DNA of 64,000 bases from an uncultured Halieaceae bacterium (lineage in GTDB: Bacteria > Pseudomonadota > Gammaproteobacteria > Pseudomonadales > Halieaceae): positions 1 through 64,000 of the forward strand of contig CAJXMD010000004.1 in assembly GCA_913056165.1 (NCBI GenBank), given 5' to 3'. Shown piece after piece: positions 9,370 through 49,007 of the stretch. Each line of letters begins with the position of its first letter. Position 1 is the first letter of the stretch. Both the position numbers and the translations under genes were made by a program. The notes under the pieces were generated by a model. It had not been told where the DNA came from and ran no database searches. It worked only from the letters and a program-made list of their open reading frames with translations.

Positions 9370-10356
9370 ATGAGCAAACGTTATAACTTTCCGATGCCGT
9401 TCGGCTGGTATCAAGTTGCCTACTCAATCGATCTTGAGGTGCGTCAGTCCAAGCCATTGCACTACTTTGGCCAAGAGATGGTCATGTTCCGCGGCGAAGA
9501 CGGTCGCGTTCGTGTGCTCGATGCGCATTGCCCCCACTTGGGCGCTCACCTCGGCTATGGCGTTCACGATGCAGAAGGTGGCGGCAGAGTTGAAGGTAAT
9601 AATATCGTTTGTCCGTTCCACTCATGGAAGTTCAACGGCGACGGCCAAGTGGAGGAAATCCCATACGCGAAAAACATTCCACCTAAGGTCAAGGATAAGC
9701 AGTGTATTCGCTCGTGGCATGTCGAAGAGAAGAATCAGGTCATCTGGGTGTGGTACCACCCCGATAAAACGGTAGCGCCCAAGTGGAATGTGGCAACAAT
9801 CCCCGAAGCGGATGACCCTTCGCTGGGCTGGTCAAAGGTCGACAGGTCAAAGGTGAAAACCTGGCGTATGAAGACCATCCCTCAGGAAATCGCCGAAAAT
9901 TCAGTTGATTTCGCGCACTTCATCTATGTTCACAAGGTCAAGAGTGATCCGAGTGCCGCTGGAGACTACGACGGCCACCACTGCCAGCGCGTGGTCAAGG
10001 CAAACATGGAGACACCTCGTGGCGTCATTGAAGGCAGCATTAACAGCGAAAACTGGGGGCCAGGCCAGAGCCAGATTCGGTTTACTGGCATTACGGAGAC
10101 CCTGCTGTTCGGCAACCTTGTTCCGGTCGACGAAGAGTTGGTTGAAATCAACTTCACGTTCTTCCAACCGCTGGTCAATGGTGAGGCGCCGAAGGGCGGT
10201 GTTCAAGACGCGATCATCAAGGACTTGATTCGCCAACTGGATGAAGACAAGATTATTTGGGAGAAAAAAGTCTATCGAGAAGCGCCCGCGCTGTGTGACG
10301 GGGACGGTCCTATCGCCCGCTTCCGCAGGTACTACTCACAGTTCTATGCCGAATAG
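9370..10356 (+). CDS. Rieske 2Fe-2S aromatic-ring-hydroxylating-type oxygenase (KshA-like)
   Basis: CPHLGAHLG...CPFHSWKF Rieske ligands; ENSVDFAHFIYVH mononuclear iron motif. Confidence 0.87.
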   Translation: MSKRYNFPMPFGWYQVAYSIDLEVRQSKPLHYFGQEMVMFRGEDGRVRVLDAHCPHLGAHLGYGVHDAEGGGRVEGNNIVCPFHSWKFNGDGQVEEIPYAKNIPPKVKDKQCIRSWHVEEKNQVIWVWYHPDKTVAPKWNVATIPEADDPSLGWSKVDRSKVKTWRMKTIPQEIAENSVDFAHFIYVHKVKSDPSAAGDYDGHHCQRVVKANMETPRGVIEGSINSENWGPGQSQIRFTGITETLLFGNLVPVDEELVEINFTFFQPLVNGEAPKGGVQDAIIKDLIRQLDEDKIIWEKKVYREAPALCDGDGPIARFRRYYSQFYAE

Positions 10357-16638: not shown

Positions 16639-16828
16639 TTTAATGCTCCTAATTCAAAACGTGCCAAGTTTACACCACAGGCAAACCTGTGGGTCCCGGT
16701 GATCGATTTTCACCTCTGTTAACCCCACGCGGTATTTTGCACCCCCCTTTTGAGTGATTCTACAGGCGCTGAGGAGGCTGGGATTACCCGCTATTGTGCC
16801 CTTTCCCGTAGGTCTTTTAAATGAAAAA

Positions 16829-16850
16829 CAATTCTTGTAAAATGTTTTAT
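16829..16850 (+). promoter_or_regulatory. Shared palindromic operator, site 3 (CAATTCT-TG-TAAAATG + TTTTAT)
   Basis: 11/14 to consensus; between tetR(-) and P450(+), 32 bp from the P450 ATG. Confidence 0.55.
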
Positions 16851-16876
16851 TCGCCAGCCGAACAATTGGGGTTAAT

Positions 16877-18220
16877 ATGACTAAGGCAAGGAATACAATT
16901 CCGTTTGTGAGCGGTTCAAAGGGTGCTGAAAACGGCGGTCATTTCGATGAATTCTGTGCTCACCCCGCATTCTTCTTGCTTCGTGCATTTCAAGAATGTG
17001 GCGAGCTAGCCGAGTTTGATATGGGCGGTACCAATACCGTGTTAATGGTTGGTCCCGAAGCGCATGAAGCCGTTTTCCGCGCTGATGACATCAAAGTAAG
17101 TGCGCCCCAAGCCTATCAATTCATGGTGCCAATTTTTGGAGAAGGCGTTCAGTACGGCGCTCCTATTGATATTGAGCGACAACAGTTGCGAATGCATTCA
17201 CGCGGCCTCGCTAGTGAAAAAATGAATCACTATGCCCCTATCATCGCCCAAGAGACTCGTGACTGGATTGCATCTTGGCCCGACAGTGGCGAGATGGATT
17301 TCTACGAGGGTTTCGCTGACCTTACGATCAAAACATCAACCCACTGTCTGCTGGGTTCTGAATTCCGCAATACGCTCACCGAGGAATTCGCATCCCTCTA
17401 CCATACGTTGGGGGCGGCAGCTGACGCCGGGGGATTGGGTGATCCGGGAGCTCAGAAGGCGGCATACGCGGCGCGCGACGCAGCGCGTGCACGGCTGGAA
17501 GAGCTCATCAGTGAGTATGTTGCCAGACGACGAGAGAACAACGAAATTCATCAAGATTTGCTGCAAGTTTACATGGATACGACCTACCCGGATGGCCGTC
17601 ATCTCACTGTCAGCGAAATAGCGGGTATGGTGGTCTGGTTCATGTTTGCTGGTCATCATACGAGCGCCAACACCGCCGCATGGACAATAGTCGAGCTAGC
17701 GCGAAACCCTGAGCTCGCCGAGTTAGTTATCCAAGAGATCGACAACTTTGTCAGTACCGGTGACCAATTCGATGTAAGAACCTTACGCCGAATGTCTAAG
17801 TTGGAAGGCTTTGTTCGTGAAACACTGCGAGTTCACCCGCCACTGAATACGCTTACGCGCCGAGTGGTGGAAGACTTCGAATATAAAGGTTATGTCATTA
17901 AAGCAGGGAAAAACGTAATGCTAAGTCCTTACGTTGCCCACCGGCTTGAAAGCTCTTTCGTTAACGCTGAGGCCTTCGTACCCGATCGTCCGCTACCCGA
18001 AAATCCATTTGCGTTAATCCCGTTTGGCGGTGGCCAGCGCAAGTGCATCGGAAATGCTTTCGCATTTCTGCAAGTCAAGGTCATCTTCACAGTCCTGCTC
18101 AATGAATTTGAATTTGAATTAGCTGGTCCGTCCGGCGAGTATGCCGAGATTATGCCTTCGCTCATTCTTCGCCCATCTGAGCCTTGCGTTTTGCGCTATC
18201 GTCGCCGAAAAACCGGTTAA
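16877..18220 (+). CDS. Cytochrome P450, CYP51 (sterol 14alpha-demethylase)-like
   Basis: 447 aa; YQFMVPIFGEGVQY; I-helix MVVWFMFAGHHTSANTAAW; ETLRVHPPLNTLTRRV; heme loop PFGGGQRKCIGNAFAFLQVKVIF; similar to recalled mycobacterial CYP51 throughout. Confidence 0.85.
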   Translation: MTKARNTIPFVSGSKGAENGGHFDEFCAHPAFFLLRAFQECGELAEFDMGGTNTVLMVGPEAHEAVFRADDIKVSAPQAYQFMVPIFGEGVQYGAPIDIERQQLRMHSRGLASEKMNHYAPIIAQETRDWIASWPDSGEMDFYEGFADLTIKTSTHCLLGSEFRNTLTEEFASLYHTLGAAADAGGLGDPGAQKAAYAARDAARARLEELISEYVARRRENNEIHQDLLQVYMDTTYPDGRHLTVSEIAGMVVWFMFAGHHTSANTAAWTIVELARNPELAELVIQEIDNFVSTGDQFDVRTLRRMSKLEGFVRETLRVHPPLNTLTRRVVEDFEYKGYVIKAGKNVMLSPYVAHRLESSFVNAEAFVPDRPLPENPFALIPFGGGQRKCIGNAFAFLQVKVIFTVLLNEFEFELAGPSGEYAEIMPSLILRPSEPCVLRYRRRKTG

Positions 18221-18245
18221 CTAGACCGATCCGAGGAAAAATTTA

Positions 18246-18464
18246 ATGCCAAAATATCGAGTAGAAGTCGACCAAATGCTCTGCCAAGGCCACGGTATTT
18301 GCACAGAGGAGTGCCCAGAGAATTTTGAGGTTATGGACGTTGAAACCGGCTATCCCAAGGTCAACATAAAAAACGAAACGCCTGGAGAAGATATTCTAGC
18401 GCGTGTGCAAGACGCCGTTATGTACTGTCCAAATCAAGCGCTTAAACTAATCGAGATAGAATAA
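18246..18464 (+). CDS. P450-type ferredoxin (3Fe-4S/4Fe-4S)
   Basis: 72 aa; CQGHGICTEECPENF...YCPNQAL (CxxHxxCxxxCP...CP); directly downstream of the P450. Confidence 0.9.
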   Translation: MPKYRVEVDQMLCQGHGICTEECPENFEVMDVETGYPKVNIKNETPGEDILARVQDAVMYCPNQALKLIEIE

Positions 18465-18479
18465 TATCCAGCAGCGCGT

Positions 18480-19887: not shown

Positions 19888-20300
19888 TGCTCGCTGTTTT
19901 CCATTTGCGCTGATACCGCCTCAGCATCCCAGTATGCTTTCAGACTGGTCAGCAGACCGCTGTCGTTAACTTCGTATACAACCACCATTTCAATCGACAC
20001 TTTCAGACCATTCAGATTATTAGCGGCGGTTATCGTCGCTGCGCAGACATCAGAACCACAGGCAATACGCTTGTGCGAGGTAAGAATGAGATCCGCCGGC
20101 CCGATCATCAGGTCCCAGAACGCTGAAATGCGCTCCCCTCCCCTGAAACCCTTACCCTCAGGGTCATGTAATGACGGTCCGACCGGGTCAAAAACTATCG
20201 CATCATCGGCAAACAGGGCCAGCCATTTGGCTTTATCGCCCTCCATTGCTGCCTTGAGGGACATTAGGTGTGCGCGGATTGCAGGTGTATCAGTCGGCAT
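19884..20300 (-). CDS. NTF2-like/SnoaL-like protein
   Basis: 138 aa; IRAHLMSLKAAMEGDKAKWLALFADDAIVFDPVGPSLHDPEGKGFRGGERISAFWD; overlaps the epimerase start. Confidence 0.8.
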   Translation of the reverse strand: MPTDTPAIRAHLMSLKAAMEGDKAKWLALFADDAIVFDPVGPSLHDPEGKGFRGGERISAFWDLMIGPADLILTSHKRIACGSDVCAATITAANNLNGLKVSIEMVVVYEVNDSGLLTSLKAYWDAEAVSAQMENSEQ

Positions 20301-21210
20301 TGTTCAATCCCATTTTCCGGAGTGTGGCTGCCGCAACTTCACGCGCCGCGGCCGCAACGTTATTGCGCGAGTATCCGAGTTCGTCGACCTCTGGTTGGTA
20401 GTGAACAACCGCATTGCGCCCAGCGTAAAGAATGATGTCAGGAAACAGCGGATGCTCGTCACGTGAGACAGGAAGATCACAAGGTTTGCCCACCCCATCA
20501 CAAAACAGTTCAAGGTAGGCTTTCCAGCTGAGATTTTCATCACCAACCAGATAGTTCTTGCCGCCGATACCGTGCAGCAGCGCTCCTTCGATCGCCTCGG
20601 ACATCGATTGCGATGCGATGAAATTCATACCCCCATCAGGAGCAACCATCGGCACTCCCTCAAGTGACCCGAGTCCAAACATCACCAGTGCCTCCAGATG
20701 CGGTATGGCCGCACCGGGCGCATAACCGAGGATAAACGGCGCATCCAGACTGCAGACATTGAAACCCTCATCATTCAACGCAACCGAATCCCGCTGCGAC
20801 AGGTAACGTGACCGAACATAGCCGTCGGTCTCAATCAACTCGGGAACGATGTGCGGATAATAGCTACCCACTAACACGCATCGTTGTATGCCCGCCTGCT
20901 TTGCGCGTTGCATGAAAGCAGGCACTGCAACCGAATTGACATCATGAAAATAGACAGTGGGATCTGTGCCAGGGGTCAAATGACGAGGGTCATTTGCAGC
21001 ACAAAACACGAGACCCTCGAAGGCTTGCAGGGTCTGATCGCTGATGCTGTTGTCTACGTAACTTCCAGGTATGTGCGCGAAGGTACTCATCTCAGTGCCT
21101 GAAGCAGGCTCACCACGTGATGAAATTGTTACCTCGTGTCCCCGAGCGCGGAGATACAGCGCTGCGTGAGCGCCAGTAAGACCTGTACCGCCAACGATCA
21201 GAATTTTCAT
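20290..21210 (-). CDS. NAD-dependent epimerase/dehydratase
   Basis: MKILIVGGTGLTGAHAALYLRARGHEVTISSR extended-SDR N-terminus. Confidence 0.82.
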   Translation of the reverse strand: MKILIVGGTGLTGAHAALYLRARGHEVTISSRGEPASGTEMSTFAHIPGSYVDNSISDQTLQAFEGLVFCAANDPRHLTPGTDPTVYFHDVNSVAVPAFMQRAKQAGIQRCVLVGSYYPHIVPELIETDGYVRSRYLSQRDSVALNDEGFNVCSLDAPFILGYAPGAAIPHLEALVMFGLGSLEGVPMVAPDGGMNFIASQSMSEAIEGALLHGIGGKNYLVGDENLSWKAYLELFCDGVGKPCDLPVSRDEHPLFPDIILYAGRNAVVHYQPEVDELGYSRNNVAAAAREVAAATLRKMGLNNAD

Positions 21211-21256
21211 GTTCGTTATCCCCTATACCTTTGTAGAGAGCCACAAGCTGCCAAAA

Positions 21257-21274
21257 TGTCAATGCAAATTGACA
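21257..21274. promoter_or_regulatory. Inverted repeat TGTCAAT-GCAA-ATTGACA, candidate operator
   Basis: Perfect 7-bp arms in the divergent intergenic region between 20290-21210(-) and 21324-21857(+). Confidence 0.5.
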
Positions 21275-21323
21275 GTAAGTATACGCATATTTACCATCTC
21301 GCAGTGTACTAGAGAAGCATCGT

Positions 21324-21857
21324 ATGGAGGGAATTCAAATGGAAGACATCGCCACCTTACGCGACAAGGACGCCATCCGCGAACTGGCCCTACTTTACTG
21401 CCGTGGCGTTGACCGAAAAGACCCTGAGCTGCTTCGCGAGCTATATGCCGATGGTGCCACAGACACCCATGGCAACGACTTTGACGGCAGCGCCCAAGAC
21501 TTCGTCGCGTTTTTGGAAAAATCATTTCCAATCATGCCCTACAGCGGACACCATGTGTGCAACCACCTTATCTCGCTCGATGGTGACACTGCCGAAGGGG
21601 AAGTCTACGCATTGGCGTACCATATTCTGCAGGGCGAAAAACCCGATGAATGGGTAGAGCATTTTCTCAGCGTGCGCTACCTTGACCACTACCAGCGAGA
21701 GAGCGACGGCAAGTGGCGTTTCGCCAGCCGTGTAGTGCATTATGACATCCAACGAATCGGACCCTGTGAGCCTCCATTGCACCAGCTAGACGCTATCGAT
21801 GATCCTAGCTTCAACGTTCTCGCATCACGCTTGTTTGCAAGAGGTCCAAGAGCCTGA
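21324..21857 (+). CDS. NTF2-like/SnoaL-like protein
   Basis: DKDAIRELALLYCRGVDRKDPELLRELYADGATDTHGNDFDG...HYQRESDGKWRFASRVVHYD; likely start MEDIATL. Confidence 0.85.
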   Translation: MEGIQMEDIATLRDKDAIRELALLYCRGVDRKDPELLRELYADGATDTHGNDFDGSAQDFVAFLEKSFPIMPYSGHHVCNHLISLDGDTAEGEVYALAYHILQGEKPDEWVEHFLSVRYLDHYQRESDGKWRFASRVVHYDIQRIGPCEPPLHQLDAIDDPSFNVLASRLFARGPRA

Positions 21858-21873
21858 ACGGTCATATTAACTA

Positions 21874-22308
21874 ATGAATAATATCGAAACCAACAAGCAA
21901 CTCACACGAGCTTTCTTCGAAGCACTGCAGACTGGAGACGGCCATCAGATAGCAGATTTTTACGCTGATAACGGTCGCGTTGTCACAATGGGCAACACGC
22001 TGATTTCAGGGTCTCACGAAAAGGAGGAGATCCGCCAATTTGCAGCAGGTGTGCTGGAGGCATTTCCTAATGGACTCGTGTTTTCGGTGCACACGCTGAC
22101 TGCAGAAAACGATCGCGTCGCTGTCGAAGCATCCTCCCGCGGCATACATTCATCCGGCCTTCCTTACGAAAACCACTACCATTTCCTGTTCACCTGGAGA
22201 GACGGCAAGCTGATGGAATTGAAGGAATACATGGACACTGAAGTCATTACCGACGTGCTCTGCGCAGGCCATCGCCCCCAGCCCGCCACCACTGGAGAAC
22301 ACGCATGA
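21874..22308 (+). CDS. NTF2-like/SnoaL-like protein (ketosteroid isomerase-related)
   Basis: QLTRAFFEALQTGDGHQIADFYADNGRVVTMGNTLISG...GKLMELKEYMDTEVITDVL. Confidence 0.85.
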   Translation: MNNIETNKQLTRAFFEALQTGDGHQIADFYADNGRVVTMGNTLISGSHEKEEIRQFAAGVLEAFPNGLVFSVHTLTAENDRVAVEASSRGIHSSGLPYENHYHFLFTWRDGKLMELKEYMDTEVITDVLCAGHRPQPATTGEHA

Positions 22309-22829
22309 CAGTACTCAGCGACGCGACACTGCGAGCCACTGCGGATAAACTGATCGCTGCTCATGCTGAAGCCTCACGCACCAACGAGTGGACATTCTTT
22401 GTTGATGAGCTCTACGCGCCCAACTGCATCTACACGTGCGAGTATGCTGGCGTTATGCGTGTGGTCGCCAACGGCATCGATGAAATCAAGGCAACCCACT
22501 ATGGGCGCGATATGCAGGTCGGCTGGGAAGGCTGGACGTTTCCATACGAGAATGTCTACACCGGCACGAGCAACCGCCTAGTCACCCACTGGTATAACCG
22601 AGGTCCGGGACGAAGGACGGATGGCAGTTTTTTTCAAACCCCGGGCATCTCGTTTATCACTCTCGACGAAGACGCCAGGATCTGCGAACAGTTCGATATG
22701 TTTGATCTCGCCCACCAGATGCTGTTGTGCGACGAGCTCGAGGCTGCTGGTTTACTATCCGCCACGCTCAAGCAGCAATGGGTCCTGCCGATGAAAGAGC
22801 GGCTTATAAATCAACTCGGCGATCAATAA
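22305..22829 (+). CDS. NTF2-like family protein
   Basis: 174 aa; start overlaps the upstream stop (ATGA); WTFFVDELYAPNCIYTCEYAGVMRVVANGIDEIKATHYGRDM. Confidence 0.75.
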   Translation: MTVLSDATLRATADKLIAAHAEASRTNEWTFFVDELYAPNCIYTCEYAGVMRVVANGIDEIKATHYGRDMQVGWEGWTFPYENVYTGTSNRLVTHWYNRGPGRRTDGSFFQTPGISFITLDEDARICEQFDMFDLAHQMLLCDELEAAGLLSATLKQQWVLPMKERLINQLGDQ

Positions 22830-24627: not shown

Positions 24628-25011
24628 ATGACCACGGCCTATTGGAGCGTACTGATCGCGGCCTACCTTCCGATTATCTGGACTGCAGCCGCCAAATTTA
24701 CTGGAGGAGACTTCAAGGACGCCGAAAACCGGTCTCCGAGAGACTTTCTTGAGACCCTAACCGGATGGCGAAAGCGTGCCCATTGGGCACAGTTAAATGG
24801 TTTTGAGGCGTTTCCGCCCTTTGCCGCTGCCGTCATCATTGCGCACCAGCAACACGCCCCCCAGACCACGATAGATCTGCTCGCTGTGGCGTTTGTAGCG
24901 CTCAGGGTGCTTCACGGGGTTTTCTATATAGGAGACCTAGGCTACCCGCGCAGTATTACCTGGTTCGGAGCCGTCGGCTGCGTCATCGCTCTGTTTGCCA
25001 TCAGCACTTGA
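24628..25011 (+). CDS. MAPEG family membrane protein
   Basis: 127 aa hydrophobic; RAHWAQLNGFEAFPPFAAAVIIA...ALRVLHGVFYIGD. Confidence 0.82.
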   Translation: MTTAYWSVLIAAYLPIIWTAAAKFTGGDFKDAENRSPRDFLETLTGWRKRAHWAQLNGFEAFPPFAAAVIIAHQQHAPQTTIDLLAVAFVALRVLHGVFYIGDLGYPRSITWFGAVGCVIALFAIST

Positions 25012-25248: not shown

Positions 25249-26019
25249 ATGAGTTCAGCAGATTTCCCAGATGGCATTGCCCTTGTAATCGGTGGCAGCG
25301 GCGGATCCGGCGCCGTCATCTGTGAAGAGCTGGCCCGTGCGGGTAGCGACGTCGCATTGACCTACCACGGCAATGAGCAACGCGCGGCAGAAACGACTGA
25401 TCGCCTCAAAGCGATGGGGCGCCATGCTGAATACCACCAGCTATCAATCGGAGACAGCAAGCGCGTCAAGGCAATGATTGATGAGATCGCCTCAAGGCAC
25501 CGCATCCACACTGTGGTGGTGGCGGCAGGCTCTGACATCGAGCAGCTGATGATCCGTGACCTGACACCGGAAAAGTGGAAAGCGGTTGTCGATGCCGATC
25601 TTAATGGGTTTTTCAATATCGTACATGCATCCCTACCCCATATGAAAGCCGGTGGTGGCGGTTCTTATGTGCACATAAGCTCTGCCGGTTTGCACAAGTG
25701 GCCGGAACGTGACGTATTGTCGGTCGCGCCTAAGGCTGCGATTGAGTGGCTGATTCAGGGGATTGCCAAGGAAGAAGGTCAATTCGGCATCCGCGCCAAT
25801 AGCGTCGCAATAGGCGTTATCAACGCCGGTATCTTCAAACGCCTCTGGGCCGACGGCACCTTCGATGAACAATGGAAAGATGCCGTACAGGCTGGCCTTT
25901 GCGTGAAGCGCTGGGGCGAACCAGATGAAGTCGCCCATGCAGTTGTCTACCTTGCCTCCCAGCGTGCCGCTTACGTCACCGGACAGATCCTCTCTGTCGA
26001 CGGTGGCTACGGCGTCTGA
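25249..26019 (+). CDS. SDR family oxidoreductase
   Basis: ALVIGGSGGSGAVICEELARAGSDVALTYHGN; C-terminal AAYVTGQILSVDGGYGV. Catalytic Tyr region atypical (HISSAGLHKWPERDVLSVAPKAA). Confidence 0.83.
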   Translation: MSSADFPDGIALVIGGSGGSGAVICEELARAGSDVALTYHGNEQRAAETTDRLKAMGRHAEYHQLSIGDSKRVKAMIDEIASRHRIHTVVVAAGSDIEQLMIRDLTPEKWKAVVDADLNGFFNIVHASLPHMKAGGGGSYVHISSAGLHKWPERDVLSVAPKAAIEWLIQGIAKEEGQFGIRANSVAIGVINAGIFKRLWADGTFDEQWKDAVQAGLCVKRWGEPDEVAHAVVYLASQRAAYVTGQILSVDGGYGV

Positions 26020-26044: not shown

Positions 26045-27043
26045 ATGAAAGTCCTGGTTACCGGCGCAACCGGATTTATCGGCAGCCATATCGTCGACCA
26101 GGCGGTCAACGCTGGATACCAGGTAGGCGTACTGGCGCGCAATCCAGACAAGCAGCGTAGCGTTCTCGCCAAACTCGGTGTCGATCTCGACAGCGTCAAT
26201 GTGCACCAAGGTGATGTACTCGACGCAGACTGGGCGTCATTGCTGCCCGGCTACGAAGCGCTAATACACAGCGCTGGCATGATGTCCAAGAACATGGCTG
26301 ATGCCAACAAACTCTGGGCGCTCAATGTAACTGCCAGCGACCTGTTGCTTAAATCCGCAGTGGACCTCGGGCTGGATCCTGTCATTCACCTGTCCAGCTT
26401 TATGGCCATGTTTCCGCCGCAAGGCGACGTTATCAAGGCCGACGACCCGGTTAAAGAGCCCGACTCGATGTACGCCAAGACCAAGGCGCAGGCTGAACGC
26501 GACGCACGCGCTCTGCAGGCCACCGGGGCACCTGTTGTTTGCGTTTATCCCGCATCCGTGAACGGCCCGCAAGACCCCACCGTCGGCAGCGGTCAGGAAT
26601 TTATCGCCAATGGGATCAACGAAGGAAAAATGTTGGTGACCGAAGGTGGACTGACATTCACCGACGTTCGTGACCTTGCCCTGCTGGTAACACGCCTGCT
26701 GGAACCCGGCAAAGGCCCTCGCCGCATCATGTCAACAGCCGACTACCTGACGCACCAGCAAATTCTGGACCTGATGAGCGAATTGTCAGGAAAAGAAATC
26801 GCGGCTGTACGGATGCCAGGCTGGCTAATGCGCATGATCGGCCGCATCGCAGACATCAAGCAGAAGCTATTCAGAGGCCCCACGCCGGAGCTTACCTACG
26901 AAACCGCCATGGTGCTGACCAAATGTGTTCCGCAAGCTGACGCCGAGGCTAGAGCTATTCTTGGTAACGATATTATCGGCGCGGATCAATGTCTTCGCGA
27001 TATGGTTCGATGGATGATAGAGCAAGGCATCATAAAAAGATAA
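26045..27043 (+). CDS. NAD-dependent epimerase/dehydratase, 3beta-HSD/sterol-4-carboxylate dehydrogenase-like
   Basis: MKVLVTGATGFIGSHIVDQAVNAGYQVGVLARNP; MYAKTKAQAERDARAL (YxxxK). Confidence 0.85.
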   Translation: MKVLVTGATGFIGSHIVDQAVNAGYQVGVLARNPDKQRSVLAKLGVDLDSVNVHQGDVLDADWASLLPGYEALIHSAGMMSKNMADANKLWALNVTASDLLLKSAVDLGLDPVIHLSSFMAMFPPQGDVIKADDPVKEPDSMYAKTKAQAERDARALQATGAPVVCVYPASVNGPQDPTVGSGQEFIANGINEGKMLVTEGGLTFTDVRDLALLVTRLLEPGKGPRRIMSTADYLTHQQILDLMSELSGKEIAAVRMPGWLMRMIGRIADIKQKLFRGPTPELTYETAMVLTKCVPQADAEARAILGNDIIGADQCLRDMVRWMIEQGIIKR

Positions 27044-27057: not shown

Positions 27058-27924
27058 ATGGCAAACGGATACTGGCTCTCCAAAAACCCGGATAAGGCCT
27101 GGGCAGAAAAGTTTTTCCTGACCGTCATTCCGTGGTGGTTTTTCTACAACATGTTGATGGTCCAAATGGGATGGCTTCAAACCGGCACTTTTTGGAACTT
27201 CATGCAGAACTTCCTGATGTGGTTCCCGTACTGCGTAATGGTTCCGTGGTTTCTACGTCGCAACTCTGGAATCCCATGGCACGAAAGTTACTGGTTTAAG
27301 TTTAACCTGTATCTATTTTGGCTGATTTTCTTCGTTACCTACTTTCACACCGAGTATTTTTTTGAGGTGCTAGGCCTGCGCTACCGCTTCCCTGAAGTAA
27401 CGCTGTACTTAGACTCAGCACTGGTTGGGCCAGCGGAAAGTACGGCCTTGGAAACTTTCCAGAAAATACCCCCTTCCATGTATTTCAACTCAATCGTTTT
27501 CTTTATCGTCTATCACGTCAGTGCGGTGATTGTCATGCGACGCATTCGAACAATGACGATCGGCTGGAGCTCCGGTGCATCAAAATTCATTGCTTGGTGC
27601 GCAATTGTTGGACTGATCTCGGCTTTCTGGGGGTGGGGCGAAACCTACATGTATTTCGTCATGATCGCACACCCAGAAGACCCCGCTTCCGTGAACGTCT
27701 GGTACGAAAATCTCCATAATATGCTTTGGATCGGTTCGTGGTACTACGCACTTTACTTCGTTGTCTCGTTCCCCAATATCTATCGGCTGGATGAAGACGC
27801 CACTGGCGAACGGTGGTCAATTAGTAGAACGTTAATTGAGGCCACTTTCGCCTCGATGATCATGCTGCTGCTGATCGACCTCGCAACGTGGGGTCTGATG
27901 TTAGCGGAGATAAAGATTTACTAA
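27058..27924 (+). CDS. Cycloeucalenol cycloisomerase-like integral membrane protein
   Basis: YWLSKNPDKAWAEKFFLTVIPWWF; YWFKFNLYLFWLIFFVTYFHTEYFFEVLGLRYRFP; VFFIVYHVSAVIVMRRIR; YYALYFVVSFPNIYRLDEDATGERWSISRTLIEATFASMIMLLLIDL resemble recalled plant CPI1 segments in the same order. ORF starts 26989; MANGYW (27058) follows an RBS-like AAAGGAGA. Confidence 0.68.
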   Translation: MANGYWLSKNPDKAWAEKFFLTVIPWWFFYNMLMVQMGWLQTGTFWNFMQNFLMWFPYCVMVPWFLRRNSGIPWHESYWFKFNLYLFWLIFFVTYFHTEYFFEVLGLRYRFPEVTLYLDSALVGPAESTALETFQKIPPSMYFNSIVFFIVYHVSAVIVMRRIRTMTIGWSSGASKFIAWCAIVGLISAFWGWGETYMYFVMIAHPEDPASVNVWYENLHNMLWIGSWYYALYFVVSFPNIYRLDEDATGERWSISRTLIEATFASMIMLLLIDLATWGLMLAEIKIY

Positions 27925-30371: not shown

Positions 30372-31253
30372 TTAAAACCCGGAGCGCTCGGTTGTAGGCG
30401 TTGTTCTACTCATGATCATTTCAGTGCGGGCTTGAATCATCGCGTCGGTTTCAGGCGTTGTCTTCAACAACCAAAAAGCGTCAGTTTCCAGGCCCTGTAA
30501 TGCCATCTCTGCAACCTCATCGGGATGCGTGGTCTGCATTTCGATACCGTACTCCGCCGCCATTTTCTTCATATCATCGACAGAGTTAATGCCTGTGGCA
30601 TTGCCATCCACTCCAGTTTTGAGGGACTCAGGCCGTACTCGCCCCGAGTTGAAAAGCCCAGTATCAACAACATGCGGTCCAGGGAATAAAGCGCTGACCT
30701 TTATCGGTAGACCACCGGCCTGCACCTGATAGTGTAGATTTTCGGTAATGGTGTGCACTGCCGCTTTCGATGCTGTATAGATAGGTTGGTCCGGGTAGAT
30801 CACAAGCCCGCCGTTGCCCGACCCGGTAACAACAAAATGCGCTGGCTCACCTTGTGCAATCAAGACCGGCATAAACGCACGAATGGAGTTGATGACGCCC
30901 CAAATGTTGACGTTGAAACACCATTGCCAATCTTTCTCTGGGTAATCCCAAATAGCCCCTGCTTCGCCCGCACCAATACCTGCGTTGGCAAACACCAAGT
31001 GAACACCACCGAAAACGCTCTGTGCTGTCGCCGCCAATGCGTTCAAACTCTCAATATCGGTAACATCACAATGGCTTACCGTAGCAGCAATACCCTCTGC
31101 AGCAAGGTCCGCAGACACAAGTTCCATGGCTGCGGCATCGACATCGCCAATCACAATCTTGGCGCCACGACGACCCAGAGCGAATGCCAACGACCTGCCC
31201 ACACCGCTAGCGCCACCGGTAATTACTGCAACTTTAGCAGTGAAATCTTTCAT
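30372..31253 (-). CDS. SDR family oxidoreductase
   Basis: KVAVITGGASGVGRSLAFALGRRGAKIVIGDVD; FANAGIG; YTASKAAVHTITE; start MKDFTAK overlaps the upstream Rieske stop. Confidence 0.9.
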   Translation of the reverse strand: MKDFTAKVAVITGGASGVGRSLAFALGRRGAKIVIGDVDAAAMELVSADLAAEGIAATVSHCDVTDIESLNALAATAQSVFGGVHLVFANAGIGAGEAGAIWDYPEKDWQWCFNVNIWGVINSIRAFMPVLIAQGEPAHFVVTGSGNGGLVIYPDQPIYTASKAAVHTITENLHYQVQAGGLPIKVSALFPGPHVVDTGLFNSGRVRPESLKTGVDGNATGINSVDDMKKMAAEYGIEMQTTHPDEVAEMALQGLETDAFWLLKTTPETDAMIQARTEMIMSRTTPTTERSGF

Positions 31254-32224
31254 GAACCCGTGCCTCCCGCCTCGGGTAAATAAAACTGACGAGCCCACTT
31301 ACGAAATAGCACCAAGTCCTGATCTTCACGACAAAAAATGGGCTTGCGCTTATGCACCTTGTTCTCCCAGATTGGCATGTCCTGCTGAATGCCTTCAATG
31401 ATGCCGGTCATCACGTTATCCCCGGCCAAATCCTCGATTTCTCGTCGTACTGTTAATGTCCAACGCAGTAGCGTGGTTTCTCGGTCAATTGGCTGAGCAC
31501 TGTTATAGACCACCATTTCTGCATTGGGGCCGTAGACATTGCGCACAAAAGCCAAGCCCATTTGAAATACTTTAGAGTGCAACTTCGATATGACGCCGCC
31601 ACCAACATCAACATCAGCACGTAAGTGTAATGTGCGGCCGTCCTCATCAACCGTGACCTCGGACGGAGGCGTATCGGGCTGACGGTGGACATACCGAAAA
31701 TGCACGGGATCACAGGTATTTTCAGCGATGTCTTGCATCGACGCCGGAATTTTAATCTCGTGATAGCGAGGAGAGGTCCAATTGGGATCCTCAAGTTCCG
31801 GAAAGTCAGGGAGTTCGAACTGAGGTGCTGTGTTTTGCGGGTGAAACCACATATAGATCTCACCGTTCTTCTCGACTGAATCCCAGATCCGAAGTTTGGC
31901 CCGATCTGGAATGGCATCACAATACGGGATCTCAACACAGTCGCCCTTAGCATCAAAACGCCAACCGTGGAATGGGCACTGCAGTGATTCCCCCACTACC
32001 TTACCGTTGACCCCTAGGTGTGCGCCCAAATGCGGACAGAACGCATCCTGAATCACTGCCACGCCGTTTCGCGTTCTATACAAGGCAAGTTCACGATCAA
32101 ACGCGAACACCCTTGTGACTTCGCCGACTTGAAGGTCTCTACTCTTAGCCACAGAAAACCAGCCCATGGGGAATTCAGGCGTAGTGTTAATAATAGATTC
32201 ACAGGGTTCGACAATCTGGTTCAT
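31250..32224 (-). CDS. Rieske 2Fe-2S oxygenase (KshA-like)
   Basis: CPHLGAHLGVNGKVVGESLQCPFHGWRF; QDIAENTCDPVHFRYVH. Confidence 0.88.
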   Translation of the reverse strand: MNQIVEPCESIINTTPEFPMGWFSVAKSRDLQVGEVTRVFAFDRELALYRTRNGVAVIQDAFCPHLGAHLGVNGKVVGESLQCPFHGWRFDAKGDCVEIPYCDAIPDRAKLRIWDSVEKNGEIYMWFHPQNTAPQFELPDFPELEDPNWTSPRYHEIKIPASMQDIAENTCDPVHFRYVHRQPDTPPSEVTVDEDGRTLHLRADVDVGGGVISKLHSKVFQMGLAFVRNVYGPNAEMVVYNSAQPIDRETTLLRWTLTVRREIEDLAGDNVMTGIIEGIQQDMPIWENKVHKRKPIFCREDQDLVLFRKWARQFYLPEAGGTGS

Positions 32225-33552: not shown

Positions 33553-35808
33553 TCAGTTAAAACTGTACGTAATGTCCAGACCATAAGTTCTAGGTTGATA
33601 ATACGTACCTGCAACGACCACGCCCAGTGCCGGCATGTTGTTCGGCTCGTCAACATCAGTCAGGTTACGGCCCCACAACGCCAACGACACGACGCCTCCA
33701 GCAAATTTAATATCATCGATTGAGACGCGCGCATTAAAACGAGTAAGCGCCTTATTTTTACCGTCCGCAAACGGAACCGGTCTCGTCCCCATCCATTCCG
33801 AGGACCGGTACGACGCATCAACGTGAAAGCGTAGCGCGGAGTTTCCGAAAACCGGCCCTGTTTCATAATCTGCCATTAAACTTCCAGTCCAATGGGGCCG
33901 CAAATGCGGCGCAATCGGGCCTCCCAGAAGCGCAAAATTGACATCGGTAAATTCAAAGTCGAGATACCCAAGATTCAAACCTAGCTGCAAGTCAGCCACT
34001 GGCAGCCACTTGCCCTCGAATTCGAAACCACGAGCTTCTGAGTCGCCCGCGTTAACAAGTACTTGGGAAGCTGGAACCGGCGGATCAACTTGCAGACCAG
34101 ACGTACCAAATTGCTGGTTGGTATACTCCACATGAAAGGCAGACAGGTTGGCCATCAGCTTACCCCCGAGGAACAGTCCTTTAAAGCCTGCCTCATAGGA
34201 ACGAGCCTCTTCTGATTCGTAAGCCACGCTCGATACCAACCCCCCCGAAATGTAGCCCGTAGAGGCTTTGGCATACATCATCAGGTCATCTGACATATAG
34301 TAATTAGCACCCAACAGCCAAGTGAACTCATCCTCGTCATAGTTCGAGTAAACGATGCCCAGGCCAACGGACTCCAGCGTACGGTCGACATAATCTTTTT
34401 TGTCACGGGTCGCTCTGCCACCGACAACCAGCTCGAGATGCTCATTAGTCCGGTACTCTAGCTGGCTGTACACCGCAGTAGAGTCAGCATCAACTTGTGA
34501 CTGATTCGAGGGCGTAAATCCGGGAAATAAATTGCCGCCGAAAATGCCGTTTTGCATATTACGATACCCACCCGCCAAGGACTCCAATCCGTAATACAGG
34601 AAACCCGATGTGAGGGTAAATTTGTCCGTGTCCCAAATCACTTGAAACTCTTCTTGCGTCTCTTCTTTATCAACGCCGCCGGTTACCACAAATGCCAGCG
34701 CCACTGTTTGCTCCAGTGGCTGACCGAGTGACGGCAAATAAAGGCCCATACCATCCAGCGTTTGACCGGGAACCTCAACCAACCCCTCACGGTATGACAG
34801 AATATTTCTAACGCTTAGGGTATCGCTGAGAGCATACTCTACCGTCAGGTTATGCCCCTCCGCTTCCAAGTAACTTGGAAGATGGATTGGGTTGTTTACT
34901 TGATCGGGACGACCAAGACTGAATGATGGCTGCCACATAAAATCCTGATATATACCTGGCATTACCCCGATGATCCCAACTGCCGAGGGAGTCATTTCAC
35001 GCTCGCTGTGGTCAAACTTATAGGTGATGTCTAGGTTGTCGATGAGGTCAAGCTGAACGGCCAGGGAGATCGCATCAACATTTTCATCACCAAGGCGCTC
35101 GGGCGAGGTCTCAACCCCTCCGCCAAATGGCGTAAGATCATATGTCGCCCCCGCGGCCAAATTATCAACGGGCCCATCGATCTCAGAGTGAGTGTAATTT
35201 AGCGAAGCGCGAAGCAATCCAATCTGGGGCGTGTCGATGCGTGTTTTGGATTGAAAGTGCCCGTAATTGCCAACCGTCAATTGCTGTCTAAAGCCGAATT
35301 CGCCTGGAGGGTTCCGCGTTATGAAGTGGATAGCCCCACCAGAAGTATTTCGCCCAAAAAGCGTTCCTTGAGGGCCCCGCAGAACCTCGATTCGCTCAAT
35401 GTCAGCATAGTTGACGACTGCACCACTTCCGCCCTTGAGGTAAACACCATCAAGGTAAGTTGCTACTCCGCTATCGGCACCCAGCGCCGTCCCGCTCGCC
35501 TCTAGGCCTCGCATCTGGTACTTGATGGACTGGGTACCACCAGAGCCTTCAACGGCTGAAAGGTTGGGCACCATTAAGCCAATATCCAGCAAGTTGTCGA
35601 TACGAAGATTTTCGATATCGCGCGAGCTGAACGCGGTAATGGAAATTGGTACTTCTTGCAGAGTCTGCTCCCGTCGCTGCGAGGTAACCACGATTTCTTC
35701 TAGAGCCAGCTGCTCGGAGGCAACCGGCAACGCGGTCATAGCGAAGGGCACGTGTAACGTAGCAAAAATCGCGCCTCTGACCGCACTGCTTAAGTTATTT
35801 CTACTCAT
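33553..35808 (-). CDS. TonB-dependent receptor
   Basis: 751 aa; plug motifs EEIVVTSQRREQTLQEVPISITAFSSRDIENL and RIEVLRGPQGTLFGRNTSGGAIHFIT; C-terminal aromatic residue. Confidence 0.95.
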   Translation of the reverse strand: MSRNNLSSAVRGAIFATLHVPFAMTALPVASEQLALEEIVVTSQRREQTLQEVPISITAFSSRDIENLRIDNLLDIGLMVPNLSAVEGSGGTQSIKYQMRGLEASGTALGADSGVATYLDGVYLKGGSGAVVNYADIERIEVLRGPQGTLFGRNTSGGAIHFITRNPPGEFGFRQQLTVGNYGHFQSKTRIDTPQIGLLRASLNYTHSEIDGPVDNLAAGATYDLTPFGGGVETSPERLGDENVDAISLAVQLDLIDNLDITYKFDHSEREMTPSAVGIIGVMPGIYQDFMWQPSFSLGRPDQVNNPIHLPSYLEAEGHNLTVEYALSDTLSVRNILSYREGLVEVPGQTLDGMGLYLPSLGQPLEQTVALAFVVTGGVDKEETQEEFQVIWDTDKFTLTSGFLYYGLESLAGGYRNMQNGIFGGNLFPGFTPSNQSQVDADSTAVYSQLEYRTNEHLELVVGGRATRDKKDYVDRTLESVGLGIVYSNYDEDEFTWLLGANYYMSDDLMMYAKASTGYISGGLVSSVAYESEEARSYEAGFKGLFLGGKLMANLSAFHVEYTNQQFGTSGLQVDPPVPASQVLVNAGDSEARGFEFEGKWLPVADLQLGLNLGYLDFEFTDVNFALLGGPIAPHLRPHWTGSLMADYETGPVFGNSALRFHVDASYRSSEWMGTRPVPFADGKNKALTRFNARVSIDDIKFAGGVVSLALWGRNLTDVDEPNNMPALGVVVAGTYYQPRTYGLDITYSFN

Positions 35809-40131: not shown

Positions 40132-42519
40132 ATGATTAAACTACCCCATCAAAAATTCAGAAAAACTGCTCTTGCTACAGCTCTAGCGACTGCGTCGTTT
40201 TCCGTGCCAACACTGACGGTAGCTCAGGAATCCGCAATGCTCGAGGAGGTGATTGTCACTGCTCGAAAGCGCGCAGAAAACCTCCAAGAAGTCCCATTTA
40301 GCGTCTCAGCATTCACAGGCGATCAATTGCGCGATGCTCAAATTGACAACATGGTTGAGGTCGGTCGCCTCAGCCCTAACGTTCAAATCAATGAAACCAA
40401 CTCACTGGGCAGCGGGTCCTTAACCGTGTACATACGGGGTATTGGTGCGAACCCCAGCTATGAACAAGGGGTGGGGCTGTACGTGGACGATGTTTATCAC
40501 CCACGCCAGACCGGTGCGCTGATGGAACTGTATGACGTTGAGCGCATTGAAATACTGAAAGGCCCACAGGGGAACTTATACGGACGCAATACAATTGGCG
40601 GCGCCATCAAATATATCACCCGCGATCCGAGTGAGGAGTTCGAGGGAAGCTTGGAGCTCAAGTATGGAGACGAAAGCTACACCCGTCTGAAAGGCAGCAT
40701 ATCGGGCCCGTTAACCGACACGTTGGGTGGGACCTTTGCGTTTTCGCGATCAACTCGCGACGGCTGGCAAATGAATGAAGCCACGGGGCAAGAGTATTGG
40801 GACTTGGATACCGCCTCATACAGAGGTGCGTTGCTATGGGCGCCCACAGACAACTTCAAAGTCAAATTTACCGCTGAATACGTTGACGATCAGTCACTGC
40901 CTTATGTGCCGCAACGAGTCTCACTGAATGAGGGAACACTGAATATTTTGTCGTTAATCACAACCACGGCAAACCAGATCTTCTTCCCCGGCGCCGCGCC
41001 CAATGCGGAGCCCCATGACCTAGCAATGCCGACGGATGAGGACACCTTCCGCAGCAGCTTTGATGCAGGCTTCAAACAGCGTTTTCTAGAGCTCAACAAC
41101 TACGCACTGACCGCGAGCTGGGACATTAATGACCAGCTCACCCTCAAGTCGGTTACTGCACAGCGCGAGACGAGCGCCACTCAGCCCTATGATCATGACG
41201 TGAGCACCCAGCAGTGGATTGATACTTTGCGTAGCGATATCGACACCACGGACTTTAGCCAAGAGTTTCAACTTAACTACACCAGCGAAAACGTCGCTGC
41301 TGTAGTGGGTTACTACTATTTGGATGGCGACTATGATCAAGGCAGCGCCTTCACACCACAAACACCTTATCTCAGAGGCACTACAAACCAGTCCAAAGAC
41401 ACCTATTACCAGAAGCGAACGCTCAGTTCCCACTCTGTGTATGGGAACGTCGATTGGAATGTGACTGAGAAATTCCAGCTTTCCTTAGGTGCACGCTGGA
41501 CGGAAGATGAAATTGAGGAAGAATCAAAATCATGGACAACCAATGGCTACTACCCGTTGGCCATCACGCAATTTACAGGGCCATTGCCACTGGCGATTGC
41601 GCCGGGTGCAGAAGCTGCTGTGGAGGGCATTTTCCCCTACGTTGGCGGTATGTGGATCACTCCTTACACTCGCTACTTTGAGCTAACCGTGCCCGAAGAC
41701 ACCTATGGCAAGGACACATTCGATGAAATCACAACGACGGTGCGCGCCAAGTATCAAATCAGCGACAACTTGATGGTCTACGCAGGTTATGCTGAAGGGT
41801 TCAAGGCCGGTGGTTTTAACCGGAACTCCGCCATCGCAAACCGCTTCGAACCAGAAACCGTGAATACCTATTCGGCTGGTTTTAAATCGACGCTGCTCGA
41901 TGGCACGTTGCGGTTTAATGCGGAATATTTCCACAACGAGTACGACGAGATGCAAACCCTCGCGGTGACATTGATAAATGGTGACCTGAGCAGCGTTACC
42001 CGCAACGTGGGTGCTGCAACCATTTCCGGGTTTGAAGTGGAGACCATGTGGCTGACACCGCTAGACGGCTTTATGCTAAGTGCAAACATTGGTTACTTGG
42101 ACAGCGAAATTGATCAACTTTTGCTTGATAACGCTGACGGTACTACCAGCAACGTAGCTGATACGCACGAACTTGGCTACGCGCCAGAGTTGACCGCCTC
42201 GATTCGCGCGATGTACAACACCGACGTCGGCAGTCTAGGTGAACTCACCTTCGCCGTGGATTACGCCTATCAAGATGATATGTATGTTGAGTCTCCGATT
42301 AACTTGGAAGACCCCTTAGACGCTTCTAAGTTTGCAAATGCATACGGCACTTGGAACGCCATGATCGCACTTGAGACTGAAAATTGGCGCTTTGCGGTAG
42401 AAGGTAAAAACTTGACTGACGAGCGAGAACTCGTGAGCGCCTTTGACATCTCTTTGATGACTGTCGGTGGTTATAACGCTCCACGTTTCTGGGCAGCATC
42501 GGCGGAGTACAAGTTCTAA
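40132..42519 (+). CDS. TonB-dependent receptor
   Basis: 795 aa; LEEVIVTARKRAENLQEVPFSVSAFTGDQLRDAQI; RIEILKGPQGNLYGRNTIGGAIKYIT; C-terminal FWAASAEYKF. Confidence 0.95.
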   Translation: MIKLPHQKFRKTALATALATASFSVPTLTVAQESAMLEEVIVTARKRAENLQEVPFSVSAFTGDQLRDAQIDNMVEVGRLSPNVQINETNSLGSGSLTVYIRGIGANPSYEQGVGLYVDDVYHPRQTGALMELYDVERIEILKGPQGNLYGRNTIGGAIKYITRDPSEEFEGSLELKYGDESYTRLKGSISGPLTDTLGGTFAFSRSTRDGWQMNEATGQEYWDLDTASYRGALLWAPTDNFKVKFTAEYVDDQSLPYVPQRVSLNEGTLNILSLITTTANQIFFPGAAPNAEPHDLAMPTDEDTFRSSFDAGFKQRFLELNNYALTASWDINDQLTLKSVTAQRETSATQPYDHDVSTQQWIDTLRSDIDTTDFSQEFQLNYTSENVAAVVGYYYLDGDYDQGSAFTPQTPYLRGTTNQSKDTYYQKRTLSSHSVYGNVDWNVTEKFQLSLGARWTEDEIEEESKSWTTNGYYPLAITQFTGPLPLAIAPGAEAAVEGIFPYVGGMWITPYTRYFELTVPEDTYGKDTFDEITTTVRAKYQISDNLMVYAGYAEGFKAGGFNRNSAIANRFEPETVNTYSAGFKSTLLDGTLRFNAEYFHNEYDEMQTLAVTLINGDLSSVTRNVGAATISGFEVETMWLTPLDGFMLSANIGYLDSEIDQLLLDNADGTTSNVADTHELGYAPELTASIRAMYNTDVGSLGELTFAVDYAYQDDMYVESPINLEDPLDASKFANAYGTWNAMIALETENWRFAVEGKNLTDERELVSAFDISLMTVGGYNAPRFWAASAEYKF

Positions 42520-47260: not shown

Positions 47261-48934
47261 CTACTGATGACCACTTAAGTGGCCAGCGGCGACGTAGCCA
47301 AACGTCATAGCTGGGCCAAGTGTCGCTCCGGCACCCGGATAAGAGCGACCCATCGGAGACGCAGCGCTGTTACCAACTGCGTAAAGGCCGGCTATGGGGG
47401 TACGGCTATCATCGAGTACCTGTGCTGAGGCATTTGTTAGCAAGCCACCCTTGGTACCAATATCGCCAGGAAAAACCTCGATGCCGTAGTAAGGCGACTC
47501 AGCCAATTGGGCAAGACACGGATTCGGACCGAGCCGAACATCGCCATACAGGAGGTCATAACTGTCTTCTCCACGATGAAAATCCTGGTCGACACCAGAA
47601 TTGGCATAGCCATTAAATTGACCAACCGTAGACGATAGCGCAGCGCCATCTATACCAAGTTTTTGTCCCAATTCCAGCAACGTGCTGCCTGAAACTAATA
47701 ACTCATTTCGAACTTTTCTTGGTTGCATAAAGTCCATTCGCATTGCACTCGGCAGAAGTGGACCAAACGGATACTCTCGCCTATAACGGCTGTCAAAAAT
47801 CGCGTAACAGGGCAAGTTGTTTTCTTTGTACATAGCTTGAACAGCGGTTGTGTAGGCAACCGATTCATTCACAAACCGCTTACCCTCTTGATTAACAAGA
47901 ATACATCCCGGCATCGAGCGCTCGGTAAATAGCATGCGAGCACGATCCTCACCATCAATATTGATTGTCGGCCCCCACCACGCTTCATCCATTAAATGCG
48001 TAGCGGCACCCACTTTTTCTCCCGCACGAATAAGATCACCCGTGTTACCGGGATATGCAGCAGACCACCCAGAATCAGTAGGCCCAGGAAGGAATTTCGC
48101 ACGCATCGCGCTATTGTGCTCAAACCCTCCGGCCGCAATCACGACGCCACGTTTCGCTCTGATCCTTTTAATTTTGCCTTGCTGCTGTATTTCGACACCG
48201 GTAACACGTCCGTCATTAGTAATTAACTGTGAAACCGGGCTGTTTAGCCAGATTGGTATCTCACGATCGTCGAGGGAGTGGCGCAGGCGCGCAATCAGTG
48301 CATTCCCCATTACCAAGCGACGAGAGCGCCTGCCTTTGAGTCGTGCAGGAAGATCAGAAAAGTATTCGATAGCCAGTTTAAGAGCCACCTTCCACCAACC
48401 AGGTGCCTTGCTCAGAAGAACCGCACCTTCCTGATTGGTATAGCCCATCATGCCCATAACTCTGGTCTGTATATGCGGAAAGCCTAACGTTTCGAATGAC
48501 TTTCCTAAGTCGCGGGCATGGTAAGGCAGTGGATCAATTGAACGCCCCCCAGTACGAGACCCAGCCACATCCTGATAATAATCAGCATAGTAAATCATCG
48601 ACTCAAAGGCAGCGCGGGTGTCCTTTTCGAGGTAACGCAACATCTTGGGTCCCTCACGCACGAATGCCTCAATTACAGTTTGATCTACATCGTCACCCGC
48701 TAAAGCCAGGAGATACTCCATCGCATCTTCTGAACTATCTTTGATCCCAGCCTGGATCATCAAGTGGTTATTGGGGATCCAAAGCCCGCCACCAGAACTG
48801 GCAGATGTTCCTCCATAAAACTCGGTCTTTTCCACAACCAGCACGTTGCTTCCCAAGTCGTGTGCGCGGCACGCTGCTGTAAGGCCACCAGCACCGCTCC
48901 CCGCCACAATAACGTCGTACTCCCCATCCCACAT
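47261..48934 (-). CDS. FAD-dependent 3-ketosteroid dehydrogenase-like protein (KstD family)
   Basis: MWDGEYDVIVAGSGAGGLTAACRAHDLGSNVLVVEKTEFYGGTSASSGGGLWIPNN; C-terminal GLYAVGNSAASPMGRSYPGAGATLGPAMTFGYVAAGH. ORF start 48994 overlaps operator site 9, so M at 48934 is preferred. Confidence 0.88.
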   Translation of the reverse strand: MWDGEYDVIVAGSGAGGLTAACRAHDLGSNVLVVEKTEFYGGTSASSGGGLWIPNNHLMIQAGIKDSSEDAMEYLLALAGDDVDQTVIEAFVREGPKMLRYLEKDTRAAFESMIYYADYYQDVAGSRTGGRSIDPLPYHARDLGKSFETLGFPHIQTRVMGMMGYTNQEGAVLLSKAPGWWKVALKLAIEYFSDLPARLKGRRSRRLVMGNALIARLRHSLDDREIPIWLNSPVSQLITNDGRVTGVEIQQQGKIKRIRAKRGVVIAAGGFEHNSAMRAKFLPGPTDSGWSAAYPGNTGDLIRAGEKVGAATHLMDEAWWGPTINIDGEDRARMLFTERSMPGCILVNQEGKRFVNESVAYTTAVQAMYKENNLPCYAIFDSRYRREYPFGPLLPSAMRMDFMQPRKVRNELLVSGSTLLELGQKLGIDGAALSSTVGQFNGYANSGVDQDFHRGEDSYDLLYGDVRLGPNPCLAQLAESPYYGIEVFPGDIGTKGGLLTNASAQVLDDSRTPIAGLYAVGNSAASPMGRSYPGAGATLGPAMTFGYVAAGHLSGHQ

Positions 48935-48991
48935 AACTCTGTCCAAGCTCGTAATGTGTGCCAGTATTTTGATTTCAGGGTAGCATAAAAA

Positions 48992-49007
48992 CATTTCAGT
49001 TGTTATG
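48992..49007. promoter_or_regulatory. Shared palindromic operator, site 9 (CATTTCA-GT-TGTTATG)
   Basis: 12/14 to consensus; A-tract toward the kstD-like gene (-); lies between it and the PQQ dehydrogenase gene (+). Confidence 0.6.

What the first reader, a model, noticed from the sequence alone, without database searches (positions are those of the whole stretch)
27058..27924. Cycloeucalenol cycloisomerase-like protein in a bacterial sterol-type gene cluster
Seen: a multi-pass membrane ORF whose segments YWLSKNPDKAWAEKFFL, YWFKFNLYLFWLIFFVTYFHTEYFFEVLGLRYRFP, FYxxYHVS..VMRRIR and YALYFVVSFPNIYRLDE...W.ISR occur in the order expected for plant CPI1. Known: cycloeucalenol cycloisomerase opens the 9,19-cyclopropane ring of plant/algal sterols, and obtusifoliol 14alpha-demethylase (CYP51) acts next. 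Inference: this enzyme may open the cyclopropane ring of imported cycloartane-type sterols. The plant sequence was recalled, not aligned.
Basis: partly seen in the sequence, partly recalled or inferred. Interest (0 to 1): 0.9.

Follow-up and report, generated by a model that had tools for sequence, protein, structure and literature searches.

The report
Bacterial cyclopropyl-sterol isomerase beside CYP51
A marine bacterium that shows no sign of making sterols carries a membrane protein that looks like the plant enzyme that opens the three-membered ring of algal and plant sterols, beside other sterol-trimming genes, which suggests that it eats these sterols and must open the ring first.

Summary
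The ORF is real: 288 aa, ATG at 27058 behind AAGGAG, 14 bp after an SdmB-like dehydrogenase gene. It belongs to a coherent bacterial membrane-protein family (78 matching loci, 23 invariant columns, AlphaFold pLDDT 93) that has no Pfam, NCBIfam or PDB counterpart. No tool held a verified plant CPI1. A recalled Arabidopsis sequence matches the family profile at E 3e-62 (0 of 1000 shuffles); that is a strong lead, not a test.

The P450 9 kb upstream is CYP51 (E 1e-102 to solved CYP51s) with its own ferredoxin. Across the family, CYP51 lies within 10 kb in 25 of 27 well-covered clade II loci. Seventeen of 18 loci that have an 8,14-sterol-reductase-like gene (all six published residues kept) have it within about 250 bp of the CPI-like gene. 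CYP51 occurs in 33 of 40 CPI-bearing genomes, against 5 of 368 Gammaproteobacteria and 0 of 36 congeners. 34 of 40 CPI-bearing genomes, the window's genome and 36 congeners have no triterpene cyclase.

Best reading: a catabolic CPI opens the cyclopropane ring of imported cycloartane sterols so that CYP51 can act. Weak points: no enzymatic proof, and Solimonas-type genomes have the gene without CYP51.

The parts
27058..27924 (+). CPI-like multi-pass membrane protein, 288 aa (P0001)
   Evidence: translation; family alignment; AlphaFold pLDDT 93, about 7 long membrane helices
27044..27049 (+). ribosome binding site AAGGAG, 8 bp before the ATG
26045..27043 (+). extended SDR, 3beta-HSD/SdmB/HpnA-like; same operon, 14 bp upstream of the CPI-like gene
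   Evidence: SdmB model 101 bits (cut-off 600, not met)
25249..26019 (+). short-chain dehydrogenase, first gene of the putative three-gene operon
16877..18220 (+). CYP51 sterol 14alpha-demethylase
   Evidence: E 2e-102 to Cytochrome P450 51 (7jj1/6mcw), E 3e-91 to M. tuberculosis CYP51; FAGHHTS motif; Phe at the Mtb F78 position
18246..18464 (+). ferredoxin (72 aa), 25 bp after CYP51; in relatives it is fused to CYP51
   Evidence: fusions in L061 and L065
22305..22829 (+). NTF2-type protein, divergent 8,14-sterol-reductase-like (Y37, Y43, F79, Y81, D131, D134)
   Evidence: against residues published in PMC13277303
18859..19887 (-). SdmB/HpnA-like NAD-dependent dehydrogenase
   Evidence: SdmB model 170 bits (cut-off 600), HpnA 245 bits (cut-off 368)
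9370..10356 (+). Rieske oxygenase with KshA_C domain (SdmA/KshA-like)
31250..32224 (-). Rieske oxygenase with KshA_C domain (SdmA/KshA-like)
47261..48994 (-). KstD-like 3-ketosteroid dehydrogenase
   Evidence: 588 bits to 3-ketosteroid-delta-1-dehydrogenase model (cut-off 789)
33553..35808 (-). TonB-dependent receptor, candidate sterol uptake
40132..42519 (+). TonB-dependent receptor, candidate uptake

Best explanation
The ORF encodes a bacterial cyclopropyl-sterol isomerase, a relative of plant cycloeucalenol cycloisomerase, used in sterol breakdown rather than synthesis. Proposed pathway: algal or plant 9beta,19-cyclosterols (cycloartenol or cycloeucalenol type) are imported, possibly by TonB receptors. 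The membrane enzyme protonates C19, the C9-C19 bond breaks, and the C8 proton is lost, giving a delta-8 14alpha-methylsterol such as obtusifoliol. CYP51 with its ferredoxin removes the 14alpha-methyl; an NTF2-type 8,14-reductase-like protein handles the resulting diene; Rieske and SdmB-like enzymes remove C4 methyls; KstD/KshA-type enzymes start ring breakdown. Shown here: the family, its gene linkage, co-occurrence with CYP51 and absence of a cyclase. Inferred: the reaction, the substrate, the order of steps and uptake.
For: Family of 78 bacterial loci; profile match of the recalled CPI1 (unverified lead). CYP51 within 10 kb in 25 of 27 full-flank clade II loci and anywhere in 33 of 40 CPI genomes (one of them weak, 28% identity), against 5 of 368 other Gammaproteobacteria and 0 of 36 congeners; Fisher p 2e-36, without correction for kinship. 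8,14-Bsr-like gene in 18 loci, 17 of them within about 250 bp, all six published residues kept (PMC13277303). SdmB-like gene within 50 bp in 10 clade I loci and the window. Spongiibacter pelagi: CYP51-ferredoxin fusion, SdmB-like, Bsr-like, CPI, TonB receptor in a row on one strand. No cyclase in the own genome, 36 congeners or 34 of 40 CPI genomes. Six KshA_C Rieske proteins in a 2.4 Mb genome.
Against: No verified plant CPI could be compared. E99 and D119, near-invariant in bacteria, are His and a gap in the recalled plant sequence. Seven CPI genomes (Solimonas, Hydrocarboniphaga, Sphingomonas) have no CYP51. In the window CPI and CYP51 are 9 kb apart and not in one operon. The window's genome is about 87% complete, so absences are not absolute. 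SdmA and SdmB curated cut-offs are not met.
Confidence: 0.68

Rival explanations
1. A homologous membrane sterol isomerase with a different reaction, for instance moving a ring double bond in lanosterol-type 14-methylsterols before or after CYP51, with no cyclopropane substrate.
For: CPI1 orthologues exist in eukaryotes on the lanosterol route (Capsaspora; also cited for sponges and Salpingoeca; PMC4967820). E99 and D119 differ from the recalled plant sequence. The family also serves CYP51 modules whose B'-helix residue is Leu or Met, as in lanosterol-type enzymes.
Against: 20 of the 23 invariant bacterial columns are kept in the recalled CPI1. The window's CYP51 has Phe at the position linked to obtusifoliol preference, and obtusifoliol is the product of CPI.
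Confidence: 0.18
2. Part of de novo sterol synthesis from cycloartenol made by the bacterium itself.
For: Four Myxococcota-type genomes with the gene carry an oxidosqualene-type cyclase; Stigmatella is reported to make sterols from cycloartenol (PMC8172173).
Against: No cyclase in the own genome, in 36 congeners, or in 34 of 40 CPI genomes. The one squalene-epoxidase hit is weak (E 1e-4) and the same model also rings in E. coli, which makes no sterols. The cyclases found have HGWPVSDC or HPWPVSDC, that is Val where cycloartenol synthase has Ile.
Confidence: 0.04
3. Not an enzyme: a membrane sterol-binding or transport partner of the CYP51 module.
For: Multi-pass membrane protein next to soluble sterol enzymes; no fold match to any enzyme.
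Against: Many invariant polar residues (K81, Y100, Y109, Y152, H153, E195, T196, Y216, Y230), and the match of the recalled CPI1, a known enzyme.
Confidence: 0.07

Closest known systems
Plant cycloeucalenol cycloisomerase CPI1 (EC 5.5.1.9)
   Same: Length, multi-pass topology, motif order, 32 of 41 near-invariant columns in a recalled sequence; pathway neighbour CYP51
   Different: Bacterial; sits in a breakdown setting without cyclase; has E99 and a D119..G124 loop that the recalled plant protein lacks; about 30% identity to the recalled sequence
CYP51-ferredoxin plus 8,14-Bsr gene pair of methanotrophs, myxobacteria and Mycobacteriales (PMC13277303)
   Same: Same CYP51 type with ferredoxin, same NTF2 protein with Y37, Y43, Y78, Y80, D133, D136
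   Different: Here a CPI-like gene is an additional conserved neighbour; the passages of that paper found or read here do not mention it, and its one use of 'cycloartenol' is a reference title
SdmA/SdmB bacterial C4-demethylation enzymes
   Same: Rieske/KshA and extended-SDR folds in the same cluster
   Different: Scores far below the curated equivalog cut-offs
Mycobacterial transformation of cycloartenol to C19 steroids (Lee 1991, cited in PMC13277303)
   Same: Bacterium acting on exogenous cycloartenol
   Different: The paper itself was not read here; no gene for ring opening is known to me from it

Membership tests
Cycloeucalenol cycloisomerase (CPI1) | Significant sequence similarity to a verified CPI | not testable with these tools
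   No eukaryotic sequences held; recalled CPI1 gives E 2.9e-62 against the A3 profile, a lead only
Cycloeucalenol cycloisomerase (CPI1) | Match to a curated CPI profile | tested here: inconclusive
   No Pfam or NCBIfam match; no CPI model was seen in these libraries
Cycloeucalenol cycloisomerase (CPI1) | Same fold as CPI | tested here: inconclusive
   Good model, but no match in PDB or BFVD; no CPI structure turned up to compare with
Cycloeucalenol cycloisomerase (CPI1) | About 280 aa multi-pass membrane protein | tested here: met
Cycloeucalenol cycloisomerase (CPI1) | Works in a pathway with 14alpha-demethylation | tested here: met
   Linkage and co-occurrence with CYP51, with exceptions in Nevskiaceae and a Sphingomonas
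Cycloeucalenol cycloisomerase (CPI1) | Opens the 9beta,19-cyclopropane ring | not testable with these tools
   Needs a biochemical assay
CYP51 (for 16877-18220) | Best matches are CYP51s over the full length, with the heme and HHTS motifs | tested here: met
8,14-Bsr (for 22305-22829) | NTF2-type with Y37, Y43, Y78, Y80, D133, D136 | tested here: inconclusive
   Five of six kept in the window copy and Y78 is Phe, a change reported as harmless; all six kept in 18 relatives; the published protein itself was not aligned
SdmA / SdmB | NCBIfam equivalog cut-off (600 bits) | tested here: not met
   65-70 bits for the Rieske proteins, 101-170 bits for the dehydrogenases

The most novel reading that the evidence does not exclude
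The bacterial family is the older one: a sterol-eating bacterium's ring-opening isomerase, travelling with CYP51 and the 8,14-reductase, was passed to eukaryotes and became plant CPI, so that this step of the cycloartenol route is of bacterial catabolic origin.
Probability: 0.12. Interest if true: 0.8.

Novelty: new variant of a known kind. Interest (0 to 1): 0.63.

Why it matters
Bacterial breakdown of ordinary sterols such as cholesterol is well described, but how bacteria deal with the 9,19-cyclopropane ring and the 14-methyl group of algal and plant sterol intermediates is open. A conserved CPI-like/CYP51/8,14-reductase module in bacteria without cyclases would name the genes, explain why non-sterol-making bacteria keep CYP51, and give a bacterial test system for an enzyme family with no solved structure found here. 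It also warns against reading CPI or CYP51 genes in metagenomes as evidence of sterol synthesis.

Tried and rejected
Pfam and NCBIfam scans of the protein and of all 77 relatives: only weak DUF5657 and noise. PDB sequence and profile search: nothing. Foldseek against PDB and BFVD: best E 2.0, TM at most 0.27. Single-sequence AlphaFold: useless, pLDDT 46. Searches for viral and plasmid relatives: none. A text search for CPI peptide strings to authenticate the recalled plant sequence: none. Literature on bacterial CPI: none found in the open-access library. De novo sterol synthesis in this organism was rejected for lack of a cyclase.

Full report
WHAT IS THERE. The reported ORF is real. window:27058-27924 (+) gives 288 aa with every quoted segment in order. 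The ATG has AAGGAG 8 bp upstream and lies 14 bp after the stop of an extended SDR gene (26045-27043); a second SDR (25249-26019) precedes that, so the three probably form one operon. The longer 311-aa ORF from 26989 overlaps the upstream gene, and relatives begin at the later ATG.

FAMILY. No Pfam, NCBIfam or PDB sequence family covers it. One scan of GTDB genomes gave 78 loci in Gammaproteobacteria (Parahaliea, Haliea, Solimonas, Nevskia, Hydrocarboniphaga, Spongiibacter, Ketobacter, HdN1), Myxococcota and Alphaproteobacteria (Zavarzinia, sphingomonads). Viral and plasmid collections gave none. It is rare: the window's genome only among 369 sampled genomes of the class, and 0 of 36 congeners. 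The 77-row alignment has 23 invariant columns: P63 K81 Y95 F96 Y100 F101 F102 L105 G106 Y109 G124 P138 M141 F149 Y152 H153 R161 E195 T196 Y216 G226 Y230 F234. AlphaFold with this alignment gives pLDDT 93, pTM 0.91, with about seven long membrane helices. Nothing similar is in the PDB (to April 2026) or BFVD, so if the family is CPI its fold has no solved example there. The tree splits it into clade I (with the window, inside a fully supported group with Halieaceae) and clade II.

IS IT CPI? No tool holds plant proteins. Against the bacterial profile it scores 206 bits, E 2.9e-62 in a set of 1001 in which none of 1000 shuffles scored, and it keeps 32 of 41 near-invariant columns. It is not an echo of the query: P0001 ranks only 54th of 78 as its match, clade II myxobacterial sequences being among the closest, and where clade II differs from P0001 it agrees with clade II at 24 columns and with P0001 at 8. 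I treat it as a strong lead and not as a test. Differences: near-invariant E99 is His and the D119..G124 loop is missing. The Nannocystis homologue (L084) also has His and no D119, so these residues are not family-wide.

NEIGHBOURS. The P450 at 16877-18220 is CYP51: E 2e-102 to solved 'Cytochrome P450 51' (7jj1/6mcw) and 3e-91 to the M. tuberculosis enzyme over the full length. A 4Fe-4S-type ferredoxin follows 25 bp later. A paper from May 2026 describes 8,14-Bsr, an NTF2-type sterol reductase found with just this kind of CYP51 plus ferredoxin, and names Y37, Y43, Y78, Y80, D133 and D136 as pocket residues (PMC13277303). An NTF2-type gene near CPI in 18 relatives keeps all six, at exactly those numbers in L069. 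The window's copy (22305-22829) keeps five and has Phe for Y78, a change the paper found harmless. The published sequence itself was not available for alignment.

LINKAGE. CYP51 lies within 10 kb of the CPI-like gene in 25 of 27 clade II loci with full flanks. 17 of 18 Bsr-like genes lie within about 250 bp of it. In 10 clade I loci an SdmB-like gene lies within 50 bp. In Spongiibacter pelagi the order on one strand is CYP51-ferredoxin fusion, SdmB-like, Bsr-like, CPI, TonB receptor. Genome-wide, CYP51 is in 33 of 40 CPI genomes (one weak, 28% identity), 5 of 368 other Gammaproteobacteria and 0 of 36 congeners. Fisher p is 2e-36, but relatives are not independent and the background is gammaproteobacterial while many carriers are Myxococcota. 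Exceptions: seven genomes of Solimonas, Hydrocarboniphaga and Sphingomonas have CPI and no CYP51. There a KshA-type Rieske gene is often beside CPI, and in L017 another P450 lies within 1 kb.

SYNTHESIS OR BREAKDOWN? PF13243 finds no triterpene cyclase in the own genome, in 36 congeners or in 34 of 40 CPI genomes. Two of the six positives score as squalene-hopene cyclases. The other four are in Myxococcota-type genomes, and their HGWPVSDC or HPWPVSDC motif has Val where human lanosterol synthase has V453 and, from my own knowledge, cycloartenol synthase has Ile. The own genome has seven P450 matches and six full KshA_C Rieske genes in 2.4 Mb, a KstD-like gene and two TonB receptors in the window. 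This is the make-up of a steroid degrader.

MECHANISM. CYP51 acts on delta-8 14alpha-methylsterols; in plants CPI must open the ring first (established knowledge). The window's CYP51 has Phe at the M. tuberculosis F78 position (AYQFMVPIFGEG). In trypanosomes this B'-helix residue sets substrate preference, and the T. brucei form is obtusifoliol-specific (Lepesheva 2004 and 2006, seen as references in PMC6099924; that the two positions correspond is my own knowledge). Clade II CYP51s mostly have Leu or Met there. So the window's pathway probably runs through C4-monomethyl sterols: cycloeucalenol to obtusifoliol by CPI, then CYP51. That the protein protonates C19 and loses H8 is inferred from plant CPI.

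NOVELTY. Searches of 5.4 million open papers for cycloeucalenol with bacteria, myxobacteria or Gammaproteobacteria, and for cycloartenol with steroid degradation, found no description of a bacterial CPI. CPI in organisms without a cycloartenol route is documented in eukaryotes (Capsaspora, PMC4967820).

Noticed in passing
L061:6555-13384: Five genes in a row on one strand: CYP51-ferredoxin fusion, SdmB-like, 8,14-Bsr-like, CPI-like, TonB receptor (Spongiibacter pelagi).
   Followed up: yes
L017, L021, L026, L027, L030, L034: Solimonas and Hydrocarboniphaga carry the CPI-like gene near a KshA-type Rieske gene but have no CYP51 in the genome; how they would remove a 14-methyl is unexplained.
   Followed up: partly
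L084 and L094: Nannocystis pusilla has a divergent CPI homologue (His at position 99, no D119) and an oxidosqualene-type cyclase with Val at the lanosterol/cycloartenol position.
   Followed up: partly
window 13986-22829: Six NTF2/SnoaL-type genes within 9 kb (13986, 18480, 19884, 21324, 21874, 22305); only the last resembles 8,14-Bsr.
   Followed up: partly
window 38985-39749: Fatty acid hydroxylase/sterol desaturase superfamily membrane protein; homologues recur near CPI in 11 loci.
   Followed up: no
L025: A MAG record titled Klebsiella pneumoniae (CAMAXE010000001.1) carries the cluster and groups with environmental Gammaproteobacteria; the title looks wrong.
   Followed up: no
window 24628-25011: MAPEG family membrane protein inside the cluster, role unknown.
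   Followed up: no
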